Under the pieces are notes generated by a model. That model was not told the origin of the DNA, searched no databases, and saw only the letters and a list, made by a program, of their open reading frames with translations. A stretch of DNA of 23,617 nucleotides from positions 1-23,617 of IMG/VR virus record IMGVR_UViG_3300017786_000148; one strand, given 5' to 3'. This stretch comes from a virus. How positions within the stretch are numbered: the stretch's first letter is position 1; each line of letters begins with the position of its first letter. Of the stretch, positions 4,709 to 23,617 are shown piece by piece. Both the position numbers and the translations under genes were made by a program.

Positions 4709-4716
4709 TATTTATA
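4709..4716 (-). promoter_or_regulatory. T4-type late promoter octamer
   Basis: Perfect TATAAATA on the minus strand in the 33-nt space between the 228-aa and 115-aa genes, 22 nt before the ATG at 4687. Its upstream flank (TCGT) is the same as that of the octamer before gp25. Transcription would start about 5-7 nt downstream, giving a leader of roughly 15 nt that just contains the ribosome site. It would drive the 115-aa gene and the rest of the fibre cluster. Confidence 0.75.
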
Positions 4717-16069: not shown

Positions 16070-16077
16070 TATTTATA
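16070..16077 (-). promoter_or_regulatory. T4-type late promoter octamer (proximal)
   Basis: Perfect TATAAATA on the minus strand, 33 nt before the 257-aa gene, in the 80-nt space after gp7. It is one of two octamers 40 nt apart in front of the receptor-binding cassette. Confidence 0.75.
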
Positions 16078-16109: not shown

Positions 16110-16117
16110 TATTTATA
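16110..16117 (-). promoter_or_regulatory. T4-type late promoter octamer (distal)
   Basis: Perfect TATAAATA on the minus strand, immediately after the TAA stop of gp7 (16118-16120). The 80-nt space 16038-16117 holds both octamers and a ribosome site (AATAGGAG), with no clear terminator hairpin. It may give a longer leader than the proximal octamer. Confidence 0.7.
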
Positions 16118-19667: not shown

Positions 19668-21617
19668 TCAATAACCAGAGGAGCTGGAAGAGTGACTATG
19701 AGAATCAGAACTTGAAGAACTTGAACTTGAAGAAGAGGAACTTGAAGTTGAAGAGATTGTTGTTCCACCACTTGCAGCACCACTTGTAGCTTTACCGAAT
19801 GTACCAACCACAGTATGAGAGCCAGGCGAAGGAGTACTTCCCTGTTGATCTGTCTGTGCAGTAATTCTTGAACCACCACTATCAATACTTAAAAGTTGAT
19901 TTCTTACTGGAACGATATCATTTGAATCTGGAATTGCAAAGAAGTGAATTGTACCATCACCATTCATAGTAGATGTGATCTGTAAATCATTTACAGTAAT
20001 TGTACCTGTAGTATAATTGATATCACCAGCGTTTGCATTTATATAAACTCTTGATTGTGCGACTACCTGATAAACTCTTACGATACCAGAACCATCATCA
20101 TCAATGAAATGTGTTGCAGTAGAACCAGCGACAGTAAATCCTGTTGATGATATTACTGGTGGTTCATCATCATGTGGATGATAGATTGAATTATAAAATT
20201 TTATAACATATTGTTTCTTAGTATTAATCTGAGCTCTTTGTGATTTGTACATTCTAATATTAGAAATGTTGCTAATGATAGAAGTGTCGGATGTATCAAT
20301 CAATCTAGATATTTCTGAGAAACGATACATACCGTCAAACTTTTCTAGATTATTATCACTGTATTCTGAAATTGTATTTGCAACTATTGTTTCTAAGTCA
20401 CCAGAACTCTTAGTAGTTGTTGTCGGATCATATCTAAAGTTTACATCCATGATGACGTAAATGTTTTCTGGATCAACAATAACTGGACGAACCGAAGCAA
20501 TGTTATAAGATTTTAATTGTGAGACAATATTTTCTTTTTGAGCTTCAGTTAAGAATGTTCCTTGAAGTGGACTAATAGAAATATAAACCTGTCCATAAAC
20601 TGGTGGATCATTATCTTCTCCACCCCACACTTGGATAGTTTTAATGTTGGGATATATCGTAGGAAGAATTTGTTTATAATCAAATCCAGTGACAGCACGT
20701 TTCTGTGCAGTATAACTGAGAGGTGCATAGTACTTGATTGATTGAATTGTTTCTGCTTCATCACCACCAGATGCAGATTGAATAGTAGACACCGCAACAT
20801 TTGTTTGTCCATTGATAGATGTTACAGTAAATTGGTTTGCACTATTAGCTAATGTTTTATTTGTAACAACGTATTCCATAATAATAATGTTACCATCAGA
20901 AAGTTTCTTACCAATTACATCATCTCCAAAGTAAACTTCAAATCTACCGTCATCTGTTTCTTGTAGAAAGTATACTGGATCAGAACCAGTTGTGCCTGTG
21001 ATTTCACTGGCAAGTGCAAATGTTTCCAATGTAGTATCTGTGGCAGATTTCTGTACTGACACTTTAAGTGTTGTCGTATCAGCTCTATCATTCGCCAACA
21101 AATATTTCTTTTCTGGATTGTTATAATCTACTGTGTACTTTGTTGTTGTGAGTGTACCTTCATAGATTGGAATGTTTGAAAAGATAAGAAGTCCGTTTGT
21201 AATTTGTGTTGTGATATCTTCATTAGTAACAAAACCATAAGTCGAGTTGTTTACTGAAGTTGAAAACTTTGTACCTTTAGGCATTGTCAAGTTTGACAAC
21301 TGATTATTAGTTACAGTAATCTCTACTCTTGCAACTGGAGCCCTTGCAGAACGTGGAGTATATCCCAAACTCTTTGCGTGTGATACAACTGAACCACGAG
21401 TTGTCGCACTATCCAAAAACATTTCATTCGTTGCAAAGTTGGCATTCATTGCAAGATAATGAGTATTGTATGCAAGTAAGTCTATGATAGTTGAAAGTCC
21501 AGAACCTTCAAAGTTATAATCAGAGAACTCTGACTGGCCCTTCATGTATGTTTTTAAATTATTTTTTATTGCATCGAAATCTAATTCGGTAACATTAACT
21601 TCTGATTTATTTGCCAT
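19668..21617 (-). CDS. 6: Baseplate wedge protein gp6
   Basis: The N-terminal third carries the gp6/J-like signature: FEGSGLSTIIDLLAYNTHYL (36-55), NANFATNEMFLDSATTR (58-74), then VVSHAKSLGYTPRSARAPVA (77-96). Length (649 aa) is close to T4 gp6 (about 660). In T4, gp6 dimers form the continuous inner ring of the baseplate and bind gp25, gp53 and gp7. The middle part includes VYFLQETDDGRFEVYFGDDV and RAVTGFDYKQILPTIYPNIK, both typical. The C-terminus is unusual: a run of 13 serines (625-637), then DSHSHSSSSSGY. Start ATG (21617) directly abuts the gp25 stop, so the two are likely translated together in the right ratio. Confidence 0.95.
   Translation of the reverse strand: MANKSEVNVTELDFDAIKNNLKTYMKGQSEFSDYNFEGSGLSTIIDLLAYNTHYLAMNANFATNEMFLDSATTRGSVVSHAKSLGYTPRSARAPVARVEITVTNNQLSNLTMPKGTKFSTSVNNSTYGFVTNEDITTQITNGLLIFSNIPIYEGTLTTTKYTVDYNNPEKKYLLANDRADTTTLKVSVQKSATDTTLETFALASEITGTTGSDPVYFLQETDDGRFEVYFGDDVIGKKLSDGNIIIMEYVVTNKTLANSANQFTVTSINGQTNVAVSTIQSASGGDEAETIQSIKYYAPLSYTAQKRAVTGFDYKQILPTIYPNIKTIQVWGGEDNDPPVYGQVYISISPLQGTFLTEAQKENIVSQLKSYNIASVRPVIVDPENIYVIMDVNFRYDPTTTTKSSGDLETIVANTISEYSDNNLEKFDGMYRFSEISRLIDTSDTSIISNISNIRMYKSQRAQINTKKQYVIKFYNSIYHPHDDEPPVISSTGFTVAGSTATHFIDDDGSGIVRVYQVVAQSRVYINANAGDINYTTGTITVNDLQITSTMNGDGTIHFFAIPDSNDIVPVRNQLLSIDSGGSRITAQTDQQGSTPSPGSHTVVGTFGKATSGAASGGTTISSTSSSSSSSSSSSSSDSHSHSSSSSGY
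19707..19745 (-). repeat. Poly-serine tract at gp6 C-terminus (13 x Ser)
   Basis: Thirteen consecutive serine codons (mixed TCA, TCT, AGT, TCC) encode S625-S637, followed by DSHSHSSSSSGY. The mixed codons indicate selection for the peptide. The tail is likely disordered. Confidence 0.92.
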
Positions 21618-22061
21618 TTATCTAAGTCTCTCTAAAAATACGTTTACAGTCTGAGCACCAGATGGAGAGTTTACAACAAAAAATTCTATGGTAACATTGT
21701 ATGCGTTTTGATCTACGTTTGCTGTTGATGATACGTTGATAAGTTCTACTCTAGGTTCAAAGTTTGTAATGACATCTTGAACGTGCCGTGAAAGAACGCT
21801 CTCTACGATTGGTGTTACTGGTTCAAATAAAACTGCACGAACATCAGAACCAATCTCTGGATGAAATGGCCTTTCATAGAAGTTCGTATTAATTAAATTA
21901 CGAACACTTCTCTTCACTGCTTCAACATTAGTGAGCTTAGTTATATCACCAGTAAGAGGATGAGCAACAAAATTTAAATTCAAGTCAGAGAAGACTTGTG
22001 CGTTTCTATCTGAATCGTTTGTTGCAGACGCATCTCTAAATGCAGTTGGATTAGCAGCCAT
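21618..22061 (-). CDS. 25: Baseplate wedge protein gp25
   Basis: The gp25/lysozyme-like (GPW/gp25) family core is present: VEAVKRSVRNLINTNFYERP (46-65) followed by FHPEIGSDVRAVLFEP (66-81), then the NFEPRVELINV segment (about 98-108) typical of the family. Length (147 aa) fits (T4 gp25 about 132). In T4, gp25 sits next to gp6 in the wedge core and nucleates sheath polymerisation. In T4 gene 25 lies away from gene 6; here it abuts gp6, an arrangement common in other contractile systems. It is preceded by a perfect late promoter octamer and AAGGAG ribosome site, so it heads a transcript. Starts MAANPTAFRDAS. Confidence 0.95.
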   Translation of the reverse strand: MAANPTAFRDASATNDSDRNAQVFSDLNLNFVAHPLTGDITKLTNVEAVKRSVRNLINTNFYERPFHPEIGSDVRAVLFEPVTPIVESVLSRHVQDVITNFEPRVELINVSSTANVDQNAYNVTIEFFVVNSPSGAQTVNVFLERLR

Positions 22062-22078: not shown

Positions 22079-22086
22079 TATTTATA
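22079..22086 (-). promoter_or_regulatory. T4-type late promoter octamer before gp25
   Basis: Perfect TATAAATA on the minus strand in the 31-nt space after the nuclease gene, 17 nt before the gp25 ATG. The expected start point almost coincides with the AAGGAG ribosome site at 22068-22073, so the leader would be about a dozen bases. It likely drives gp25, gp6 and gp7. Confidence 0.78.
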
Positions 22087-22092
22087 ACGAAA

Positions 22093-22494
22093 TTACAAAA
22101 CGACTAGAGCTCTATTCTTTATATGTTCTTCTTCTATGTCATCTTTCGACTGTCCATAATATGCAACAGCATGATGTTCTGATATCATCTTATCATTAAG
22201 AATACTTCCATCAGTCAATTTAAATTGACCAAGTATCCTACCATATTTACCCTTCCCATCCTTGACAGTCACAAGAGTCTGGTTAGAACCTACAGGCATA
22301 TGTGCCTTAACATATTCCTTTGCAGCTGTTCCATACTTCTTTTCTTCCAAGTCTCTCGTTCTAGATTCTGGTGTATCAATACCATAAAAACGTATACGTT
22401 GTTTTCTCAACCATACACCAAACCCCAAGTCAATGTCAACGTCTGTTGTGTCACCATCAACCACTCTTAATATCTTACAATTATATTCGTACAT
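22093..22494 (-). CDS. Staphylococcal-nuclease-like protein (133 aa)
   Basis: SNase/thermonuclease fold with the key residues in order: D15 in VVDGDT, R35 in RIRFYGIDTPES, D40, T41 and E43 in the same segment, and R86 in KGKYGRILGQ. These correspond to D21, R35, D40, T41, E43 and R87 of staphylococcal nuclease, a calcium-dependent enzyme that cuts DNA and RNA. I chose the ATG at 22494 because GGAGG lies 5 nt before it and it begins 1 nt after the PAAR stop; a longer frame would overlap the PAAR gene. There is no signal peptide or membrane segment, so it acts in the cell or from the virion. Position between the spike tip and gp25 is unexpected for a nuclease. Role (host DNA breakdown, defence against other phages, or delivered enzyme) is not decided by sequence. 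Confidence 0.92.
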   Translation of the reverse strand: MYEYNCKILRVVDGDTTDVDIDLGFGVWLRKQRIRFYGIDTPESRTRDLEEKKYGTAAKEYVKAHMPVGSNQTLVTVKDGKGKYGRILGQFKLTDGSILNDKMISEHHAVAYYGQSKDDIEEEHIKNRALVVL

Positions 22495-22495
22495 C

Positions 22496-22792
22496 TTATC
22501 CTCCAGCGAATACGTTAGACGAACCAGAGTTGGATGCATTAGGCACCCATGAACCGTGTCCACCTGTTGCGTCACCTTTTCGATGAACGCCTATACCATT
22601 TACAAATACGGTTGAACTTCCAGCTGTTGCTGGATCTCCGCATGATGTTGTGTCTCCAATCCTAACAGTCGCTGCACCATTTGTAAATACATTTGGTGAA
22701 CCAGCTGCGTATGCGGTTTGGTGAAACGGATTAGGTGTAGGACTTGCGTGACCTACATGACTATCTAATCCAACTCTTGTTACTTCAGGCAT
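22496..22792 (-). CDS. PAAR-domain spike-tip protein (gp5.4-like)
   Basis: The 98-aa protein has the PAAR repeat layout: SHVGHASPTPNPFHQTAYAA (11-30), AGSPNVFTNGAATVRIGDTT (30-49), SCGDPATAGSSTVFVNG and IGVHRKGDATGGHG. Histidines and one cysteine (H12, H15, C51, H75) are suited to bind the metal at the tip, as in known PAAR proteins. T4 gp5.4 (about 97 aa) caps the gp5 spike and pierces the outer membrane. Here it follows the hub/lysin gene by 8 nt, the expected order. Ribosome site AGGAATAATT lies before the ATG. The C-terminal SGSSNVFAGG repeats the SPNVFTNG turn. Confidence 0.95.
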   Translation of the reverse strand: MPEVTRVGLDSHVGHASPTPNPFHQTAYAAGSPNVFTNGAATVRIGDTTSCGDPATAGSSTVFVNGIGVHRKGDATGGHGSWVPNASNSGSSNVFAGG

Positions 22793-22800
22793 AATTATTC

Positions 22801-23617
22801 CTATGCGTATATCTGATAGAACTTACCGTACTCTTTATATCTTCTATGATTATAAAAAGTTGCAATATCAAATCTATTACCAGACGGTTTAAGTGAAATG
22901 TGTAACCAAGGATTACCAGAACCACCAGTTTGATATTCTAGTAAGAATTGATCGTGCGGTACATTTTCACGAACCCACAATGCAATATCATAATACTCAG
23001 ACCTTGATGCACCACTAAATTGCATATCAGCAGCCATTCCTCTTTCATGCTGAGATGCACCTTTCGCTGGGCGGAAACCAGAAGTGATAAACATATTTGG
23101 GTATTGGTCTTTTATTGGATCAAGAACATTAGTTGCCAAGTTCTTGAGATTATTTATTATGTCTTCTAGAGTTAAACCGTGTTGTTCTTTTATCTTATGT
23201 CCGAACGCCGCATTCTTTGATACGTCACCAACCTTATAATGTTTTGATATCTGTAGACTATAATCAACACTCTGTTCCGTAAGTGTAACCTGTTCAACAG
23301 CTCCTACTGATTGATTACCAGCCTCTACAGATGCTATGTTTGGATTTTCTCCTGTTTCTGCACCGTGTTCCGTAATGTCATCTGGAACACTTGGCTCTGC
23401 AATTAATCTTCTTGACGCACTTTCCGTATTATATCTACCCTCAAGCGCATTGAAAGAATAATCAGAGAATGATGTCGGTAGATATTTTCCAGCTGCAACC
23501 GCAGCTTTGATTTCATCTTCACTCTTCTCAACATCATCGTCACCCATAAACTCACCTTCATCTGGCAATTCTATTCTTGGTTTCTCATCAAGGACTATTG
23601 CCTCAGGTGGTTCAGTA
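22801..23617 (-). CDS. Baseplate hub / tail lysin with M15 peptidase domain, partial (5' end outside window)
   Basis: The frame is open to the window edge; 271 codons are visible and the TTG at 23568 is probably just an internal codon. The visible N-terminal ~100 residues are acidic and low in complexity. The C-terminal ~140 residues form an M15 (Peptidase_M15_3/VanY-like) domain: SGFRPAKGASQHERGMAADM with H and D seven residues apart (codons 23047-23049 and 23026-23028), then FLLEYQTGG and NPWLHISL with the third ligand H (codon 22900-22902) and the catalytic E. Such enzymes cut peptidoglycan peptide cross-links. Its place just before PAAR fits T4 gene 5, whose product carries a glycosidase domain; here a peptidase may take its place. 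The identity of the upstream part as gp5-like hub is inferred. Confidence 0.85.
   Translation of the reverse strand, partial: TEPPEAIVLDEKPRIELPDEGEFMGDDDVEKSEDEIKAAVAAGKYLPTSFSDYSFNALEGRYNTESASRRLIAEPSVPDDITEHGAETGENPNIASVEAGNQSVGAVEQVTLTEQSVDYSLQISKHYKVGDVSKNAAFGHKIKEQHGLTLEDIINNLKNLATNVLDPIKDQYPNMFITSGFRPAKGASQHERGMAADMQFSGASRSEYYDIALWVRENVPHDQFLLEYQTGGSGNPWLHISLKPSGNRFDIATFYNHRRYKEYGKFYQIYA

What the first reader, a model, noticed from the sequence alone, without database searches (positions are those of the whole stretch)
22093..22494. Nuclease with intact catalytic residues among tail-tip genes
A complete SNase-like gene lies between the PAAR tip and gp25, tightly packed on both sides. 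It would be expressed late, together with tail genes. A late nuclease could be packaged in or on the tail and delivered with the DNA, could degrade leftover host DNA, or could act against competing phages. The pairing with a PAAR protein recalls contractile systems in which PAAR proteins carry toxic cargo.
Basis: partly seen in the sequence, partly recalled or inferred. Interest (0 to 1): 0.55.

Follow-up and report, generated by a model that had tools for sequence, protein, structure and literature searches.

The report
Roaming phage nuclease beside tail genes
A marine virus of bacteria carries an intact DNA-cutting enzyme between two tail genes, but relatives carry the same enzyme at several other places in their genomes, so it is most likely an ordinary soluble enzyme that works inside the infected cell and not a weapon carried on the tail.

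Summary
Window 22093-22494 (- strand) encodes a 133-aa staphylococcal-nuclease-fold protein (Pfam SNase E 3.7e-12; model matches solved SNase). It lies 1 bp after a PAAR gene and 31 bp before gp25. Residues matching SNase D21, R35, D40, E43, R87 and Y113 are invariant in 71 of 71 distinct relatives. The tail-cargo reading is not supported. (1) Relatives up to 80% identical sit elsewhere: before terminase gp17, or among metabolic genes. (2) Its history is largely uncoupled from gp25: distance correlation 0.24, against 0.65 for gp6-gp25. (3) It adjoins several PAAR types, and 8 of 67 loci have no PAAR within 700 nt. (4) Pelagiphages HTVC008M and Mosig lack it; their PAAR abuts gp25. (5) The cyanophage S-SCSM1 orthologue is not among the named proteins of that virion proteome. 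In the gp25 slot it ends just upstream of a late promoter (TATAAATA, 78 of 78 loci) and has none of its own, so it is probably the last gene of the hub-PAAR unit. Best reading: a single-copy, exchangeable, diffusible nuclease (T4-GC228/phrog_452, known from cyanophages) that degrades DNA late in infection. Tail delivery is not excluded (about 0.08). Interest is modest.

The parts
22093..22494 (-). SNase-fold nuclease, 133 aa (PF00565, phrog_452, T4-GC228-like)
22499..22504 (-). ribosome-binding site GGAGGA of the nuclease, formed by the last two codons of the PAAR gene
   Evidence: sequence
22496..22792 (-). PAAR-motif tail-tip protein, 98 aa, no fused effector domain found
   Evidence: PF05488 E=8e-11, phrog_281
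22801..23617 (-). C-terminal part of the baseplate hub / tail lysozyme; weak M15 peptidase match (below Pfam cut-off); the frame is open to the window end, so the gene is cut
   Evidence: phrog_894 E=7e-15; Melnitz homologue annotated baseplate hub subunit/tail lysozyme (matched)
22079..22086 (-). T4-type late promoter TATAAATA of gp25, just after the nuclease stop
   Evidence: same place in 78 of 78 gp25 loci with upstream sequence
21618..22061 (-). gp25-like baseplate wedge subunit
   Evidence: PF04965 E=2e-12, phrog_261 E=1e-45
19668..21617 (-). gp6-like baseplate wedge subunit (used as co-inheritance control)

Best explanation
The gene is a free-standing, single-copy, apparently catalytically competent SNase-fold nuclease of the cyanophage T4-GC228 / phrog_452 family. 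In the window's lineage it has been docked cleanly between the PAAR stop codon and the late promoter of gp25. SHOWN: family, fold, invariant active site, purifying selection, one copy in each complete genome examined that has it, an empty site in relatives, several alternative genome positions, and exchange largely independent of the neighbours. INFERRED: it is translated from the hub-PAAR late transcript, stays soluble in the host cytoplasm (no secretion signal or tail-binding domain seen by eye), and cuts DNA in trans late in infection, mainly host chromosome or left-over unpackaged DNA. Since its function does not seem to need its position, the tail neighbourhood is probably a landing site and expression slot, not a clue to being a tail part. 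FURTHER GUESS: if it needs millimolar calcium as staphylococcal nuclease does (recalled), it would be nearly silent in the cytosol and switch on when the cell opens into seawater.
For: Family and fold. Active site 71 of 71 distinct proteins. dN/dS about 0.04-0.13 in 13 pairs. Position in 148 rows with a full-length gene (the window is counted twice and some contigs are held as two loci; 71 distinct proteins): next to gp25 in 100, next to gp17 in 30, beside an IscA-like gene in 9, other in 9. Nuclease 73-80% identical to the window's at the IscA-like site. Named complete genomes: Melnitz has it before gp25; Syn9, S-SM1 and S-SSM5 before gp17; S-TIM5, S-SSM7, S-H38, P-SSM2, MED4-213, P-TIM68 and S-SCSM1 among metabolic or unknown genes. 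Label tree: 12 changes of position over 77 proteins, gp25-vs-rest 4. Distance correlation nuc-gp25 0.24 against gp6-gp25 0.65; nuclease close but gp25 far in 92 of 351 pairs, against 1 of 202 for gp6. Empty sites: HTVC008M, Mosig, L147, L148. One place per record in 420 of 420 records with a match. S-SCSM1 virion proteome.
Against: Within the gp25 lineage the position is very stable: 66 of 69 gp25 loci with enough upstream sequence have the nuclease directly before gp25, and PAAR ends within 250 nt in 59 of 67. At least eight loci carry a different SNase subfamily (about 50% identical) in the same slot beside a 69-88% identical gp25, which could mean selection for a nuclease right there. The tree is weakly resolved; starred branches force only one change for the gp25 label. 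No activity, timing or localisation data exist for any member in what I read.
Confidence: 0.62

Rival explanations
1. Late DNA-processing factor tied to packaging: the nuclease works with the terminase (trims or debranches concatemers), as HNH proteins do beside terminases in other phages (recalled). The gp25 slot is then only a second place from which the same late factor is made.
For: The gene lies directly between gp16-like and gp17 genes, or directly before gp17, in 30 of 148 rows; before gp17 in Syn9, S-SM1 and S-SSM5; right after terS-terL in Flavobacterium phage Fpv11. Sullivan 2010 Table 2 lists Enase VII among genes present in 5 of 16 cyanophages and an endonuclease among those in 15 (that this endonuclease is T4-GC228 is my reading).
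Against: Most copies are not beside terminase (118 of 148 rows). The gp17-gp18 region is a known hypervariable insertion region in cyanophages (PMC3037559 section 27). HTVC008M and Mosig lack the family and so must package DNA without it.
Confidence: 0.16
2. Tail-tip or virion cargo: the nuclease binds PAAR, hub or gp25, rides in the virion and enters the host with the DNA, or strikes host or competitor DNA at once.
For: Stable neighbourhood PAAR-nuclease-gp25 (66 of 69 loci; 59 of 67 with PAAR within 250 nt). Precedent: the hub homologue of Bacillus element BtI1 has an N-terminal staphylococcal-nuclease domain (PMC2147016 section 14, passages read).
Against: No fusion and no extra domain. Several PAAR classes are found next to one nuclease family, and 8 of 67 loci have no PAAR within 700 nt. 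History largely uncoupled from gp25. Orthologues up to 80% identical sit away from the hub and gp25. Orthologue not named in the S-SCSM1 virion proteome.
Confidence: 0.08
3. Selfish free-standing nuclease that spreads by cutting empty sites, as Sullivan 2010 suggested T4-GC228 may have mobilised a carbon-metabolism cassette.
For: Clean insertion between PAAR stop and gp25 promoter with empty sites in relatives; repeated change of position; the proposal for T4-GC228 in PMC3037559 Fig. S7 legend and section 27.
Against: The fold is SNase, a class known for non-specific cutting (recalled), not a homing family; strong purifying selection and wide presence in cyanophages fit a useful gene better; one copy per record.
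Confidence: 0.07
4. Competition or superinfection function: it destroys DNA of a second phage entering the same cell.
For: Would fit a late, active, exchangeable nuclease. The only PADLOC match is the SNase domain of a candidate defence protein (SNc+LTD, E=1.5e-8), a domain-level match.
Against: Nothing specific; no self/non-self discrimination is apparent.
Confidence: 0.05

Closest known systems
Cyanophage endonuclease T4-GC228 (PF00565; e.g. SSSM7_206, SSM1_125, PSSM2_233; phrog_452)
   Same: Same family: phrog_452 E=4e-35; 41-45% identity to the window protein for the cyanophage rows of alignment A1; one copy per record
   Different: The window copy sits before gp25 in the tail operon, not in the carbon-metabolism / gp17 region; open frames at the cyanophage matches are longer, 155-163 aa in the records
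'Nuclease-like protein' of Methylophilales phage Melnitz (QZI94884.1)
   Same: 62% identical, same place: hub, PAAR, small ORF, nuclease, gp25
   Different: A 51-aa ORF lies between PAAR and nuclease, and no TATAAATA precedes gp25 there
Staphylococcal nuclease (thermonuclease)
   Same: Fold and catalytic residues
   Different: About 22% identity in the structural alignment; no secretion signal seen by eye; shortened C-terminus; calcium dependence untested
BtI1 hub protein with SNase domain (PMC2147016)
   Same: SNase domain linked to a contractile-tail hub
   Different: There it is fused to the hub; here it is a separate, roaming gene

Membership tests
SNase superfamily (PF00565) | Profile match above curated cut-off | tested here: met
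   47.1 bits against a cut-off of 21
SNase superfamily (PF00565) | OB-type SNase fold | tested here: met
   AlphaFold2 model pLDDT 85; Foldseek top hits staphylococcal nuclease, E 3.5e-8, TM 0.67
SNase superfamily (PF00565) | Catalytic and metal residues (SNase D21, R35, D40, T41, E43, R87, Y113; residue roles recalled) | tested here: met
   D15, R35, D40, T41, E43, R86, Y112 invariant in 71 of 71 distinct proteins; alignment
SNase superfamily (PF00565) | Calcium-dependent, non-specific nuclease activity | not testable with these tools
   needs a bench assay
T4-GC228 / phrog_452 cyanophage endonuclease | Sequence family | tested here: met
   phrog_452 E=4e-35; T4-GC228 labels on the matched genes of S-SSM7, S-SM1, P-SSM2, S-SSM5
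T4-GC228 / phrog_452 cyanophage endonuclease | Location near the carbon-metabolism cassette or gp17 (usual, not strictly defining) | tested here: not met
   window copy lies before gp25
PAAR-linked cargo / effector | Fusion to PAAR or own tail-binding domain | tested here: not met
   separate 133-aa ORF with only the SNase domain
PAAR-linked cargo / effector | Conserved pairing with PAAR | tested here: not met
   PAAR within 250 nt in 59 of 67 gp25-slot loci, 8 without; several PAAR classes; orthologues at other sites
PAAR-linked cargo / effector | Presence in virions | tested here: inconclusive
   not named among the S-SCSM1 virion proteins; S-CREM2 lacks the gene; S-SM1 list not readable here
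Free-standing homing endonuclease | Homing-family fold (HNH, GIY-YIG, LAGLIDADG) | tested here: not met
   the only Pfam match above its cut-off is SNase
Free-standing homing endonuclease | Site-specific cutting of the empty site | not testable with these tools
   needs cleavage and mixed-infection assays

The most novel reading that the evidence does not exclude
A stand-alone SNase is carried on the PAAR tip or hub of a T4-like tail and delivered into marine bacteria with the phage DNA: a tail-borne nuclease effector that swaps alleles, and whose slot has accepted a second SNase subfamily without losing a nuclease.
Probability: 0.08. Interest if true: 0.65.

Novelty: new member of a known kind. 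Interest (0 to 1): 0.3.

Why it matters
It shows that a gene can sit stably inside a tail operon for a whole lineage without evidence of being a tail part, a useful caution against guilt by neighbourhood in phage annotation. The family is widespread in marine T4-like cyanophages and often lies beside terminase, yet no function has been tested in what I read; an activity and knock-out test would settle whether it recycles host DNA, aids packaging or clears DNA at lysis.

Tried and rejected
Tail-cargo reading: rejected as best explanation after the position survey, the co-inheritance test and the PAAR survey.

Virion evidence from record labels: S-SM1 was read for 'virion' labels over 40000-89000, but T4-GC969, detected in virions per the paper text, is itself labelled hypothetical, so labels tell nothing. 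Table S8 of Sullivan 2010 could not be opened (supplement cap 0). S-CREM2 has a full virion table but no copy of the gene. S-CREM1 (14 proteins detected) is too shallow and its gene was not looked for.

GTG start at 22575 for the nuclease: rejected; relatives match from the ATG at 22494 and the ribosome-binding site fits that start.

Phage nuclease GBSV1-NSN (PMC2390534): only 10.0% identical to staphylococcal thermonuclease by that paper, not used as a relative.

Papers seen. Passages by 'find' only: PMC9004378, PMC2147016, PMC2984593, PMC9964418, PMC2390534, PMC7029224. Passages plus named sections: PMC3037559 (sections 17, 26, 27), PMC9602691, PMC10665884. In PMC9004378 (Melnitz) a word beginning 'nuclease' occurs once, in methods; in PMC7029224 not at all. 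My searches listed no paper on this gene order; that is not proof that none exists.

Labels from my own reading, not from a call: gp13-gp16 names in the IMG/VR loci, IscA/MazG/IscU-like names, staphylococcal nuclease residue roles and calcium need, HNH-terminase precedent. The gp17 query was checked by its hit on annotated gp17 of Syn9.

Rows dropped before counts: partial or interrupted nuclease genes under 115 aa or not matched near residue 1; two gp25 loci without upstream sequence and 11 with under 450 nt; the late-promoter count was spoiled by those two loci and was redone; P-SSM2 and C48C1 handled by hand (P-SSM2 left out because its frame in the record was unclear).

Full report
OBSERVATION. 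The open reading frame at 22093-22494 on the minus strand is real: 133 aa, Pfam SNase E=3.7e-12, phrog_452 'endonuclease' E=4e-35. Its AlphaFold2 model (36-row alignment, pLDDT 85) finds staphylococcal nuclease as the top Foldseek hits (E 3.5e-8, prob 1.00, TM 0.67), and a profile of 36 relatives finds the same entries (E 5e-9). Counterparts of SNase D21, R35, D40, T41, E43, R87 and Y113 (roles recalled) are D15, R35, D40, T41, E43, R86 and Y112, each invariant in 71 of 71 distinct relatives. In 13 pairs dN/dS is about 0.04 to 0.13. So the enzyme is under strong purifying selection with an intact active site.

ANATOMY. The nuclease ATG lies 1 bp after the PAAR stop; the last two PAAR codons, GGA GGA, provide its ribosome-binding site. 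On the other side 31 bp separate it from gp25 and contain TATAAATA (22086-22079), the T4-type late promoter. It stands within 60 nt upstream of gp25 in 78 of 78 related loci that hold that sequence (80 loci, 2 skipped for lack of sequence), 24-31 nt before the start; none stands before the nuclease (0 of 66). In the window alone TATAAATA occurs 4 times against 2.1 expected, so a single hit would mean little; the conservation is the evidence. The nuclease is thus probably the last gene of the hub-PAAR unit, without a late promoter of its own, and gp25 opens the next late unit. Melnitz is an exception, without TATAAATA between nuclease and gp25. The promoter of the hub unit would lie outside the window and was not seen.

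EMPTY SITES. In cultured pelagiphages HTVC008M and Mosig the PAAR gene runs straight into the gp25 promoter with no nuclease, and neither genome has the family anywhere. IMG/VR loci L147 and L148 show the same arrangement; L130 has no recognisable nuclease.

WHERE RELATIVES SIT. Starting from gp25 (80 loci), 69 had at least 450 nt upstream and 66 of these had the nuclease there. Starting from both queries, 148 rows held a full-length nuclease (the window appears twice and some contigs as two loci; 71 distinct proteins): 100 next to gp25, 30 next to gp17, 9 beside an IscA-like gene, 9 other. The search kept the best 80 of 282 nuclease relatives and 80 of 340 gp25 relatives, so the proportions are not population frequencies. 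Named genomes agree: Melnitz before gp25; Syn9, S-SM1, S-SSM5 before gp17; S-TIM5, S-SSM7, S-H38, P-SSM2, MED4-213, P-TIM68, S-SCSM1 among metabolic or unknown genes; C48C1 among unknown genes and shortened to 114 aa; Flavobacterium phage Fpv11 right after terS-terL. Each of the 420 phage records with a match has one place, and 6 of 8 complete genomes scanned with phrog_452 have one, the other two none.

TREE AND CO-INHERITANCE. On a tree of 77 proteins the position label needs 12 changes (least possible 4; shuffled mean 27.3); the gp25 label needs 4, though well-supported branches force only 1. Position is therefore mostly inherited but appears to have changed repeatedly. Among 52 non-redundant gp25-slot loci, distance matrices correlate at 0.24 for nuclease and gp25, against 0.65 for gp6 and gp25. 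Pairs with close nuclease but far gp25: 92 of 351; the gp6 control gives 1 of 202. Pairs with close gp25 but far nuclease: 23 of 118; the gp6 control gives 0 of 118. The nuclease is exchanged without its neighbours. The positive correlation that remains (1 of 500 permutations as high) says it is not fully free.

PAAR. PAAR ends within 250 nt of the nuclease in 59 of 67 loci with enough sequence; one has it 1.1 kb away and seven have none in the sequence held, which for some is under 1 kb. Several PAAR sequence classes occur beside the same nuclease family. Pairing is common but neither obligatory nor type-specific, and is expected if PAAR simply ends the hub operon.

VIRIONS. S-SCSM1 encodes the family member SSCSM1_161, annotated 'endonuclease'. 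Its virion proteome holds 45 proteins: 29 structural, 13 unknown and three named others, none a nuclease (PMC9602691 section 13). This is indirect: a cyanophage, another genome position, a small protein, and the supplementary list was not read. I found no virion data for any phage with the PAAR-nuclease-gp25 order.

WHAT IS KNOWN. The family is the cyanophage T4-GC228 endonuclease. Sullivan et al. 2010 (PMC3037559) call it highly conserved and near carbon-metabolism genes and guess that it may shuffle that region; their Table 2 lists 'endonuclease' among genes in 15 of 16 cyanophages (equating it with T4-GC228 is my reading, and the section text and Fig. S7 legend give the two cluster numbers in opposite ways). 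A link of SNase to a contractile-tail hub has one precedent that I read, the BtI1 hub protein (PMC2147016), which keeps the tail reading alive.

CONCLUSION. The most likely role is a diffusible nuclease acting in the infected cell late in infection (0.62). A packaging-linked role is next (0.16) because of the recurrent place beside terminase. Tail cargo is down to 0.08. The finding is a new member of a known kind in an unusual but explicable place.

Noticed in passing
L052, L057, L058, L065, L068 and others: The nuclease lies between gp16-like and gp17 genes with gaps or overlaps of a few bases, inside the terminase operon; a packaging link would be worth testing.
   Followed up: partly
L093, L095, L096, L098, L099, L132, L133, L134: The same slot before gp25 holds a different SNase subfamily (about 50% identical, 153 aa) although gp25 is 69-88% identical to the window's.
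   Followed up: partly
upstream ORFs (e.g. L020, L108, L114, L161 against the window 22496-22792): The tail-tip PAAR protein is swapped between several sequence classes at a fixed place between hub and gp25.
   Followed up: partly
L002:7834-7989, L152:2863-3048, L125:617-814: Small ORFs of 51-65 aa, some with a hydrophobic start, lie between PAAR (or hub) and the nuclease in some relatives; nature unknown.
   Followed up: no
window 4709-4716, 16070-16077, 16110-16117, 22079-22086: All four TATAAATA sites of the window are on the minus (coding) strand and lie just upstream of genes; 16070 and 16110 are a close pair.
   Followed up: no
L003:5001-5345: Phage C48C1 has a shortened 114-aa member, which would lack the C-terminal helix; may be inactive or a frameshift.
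   Followed up: no
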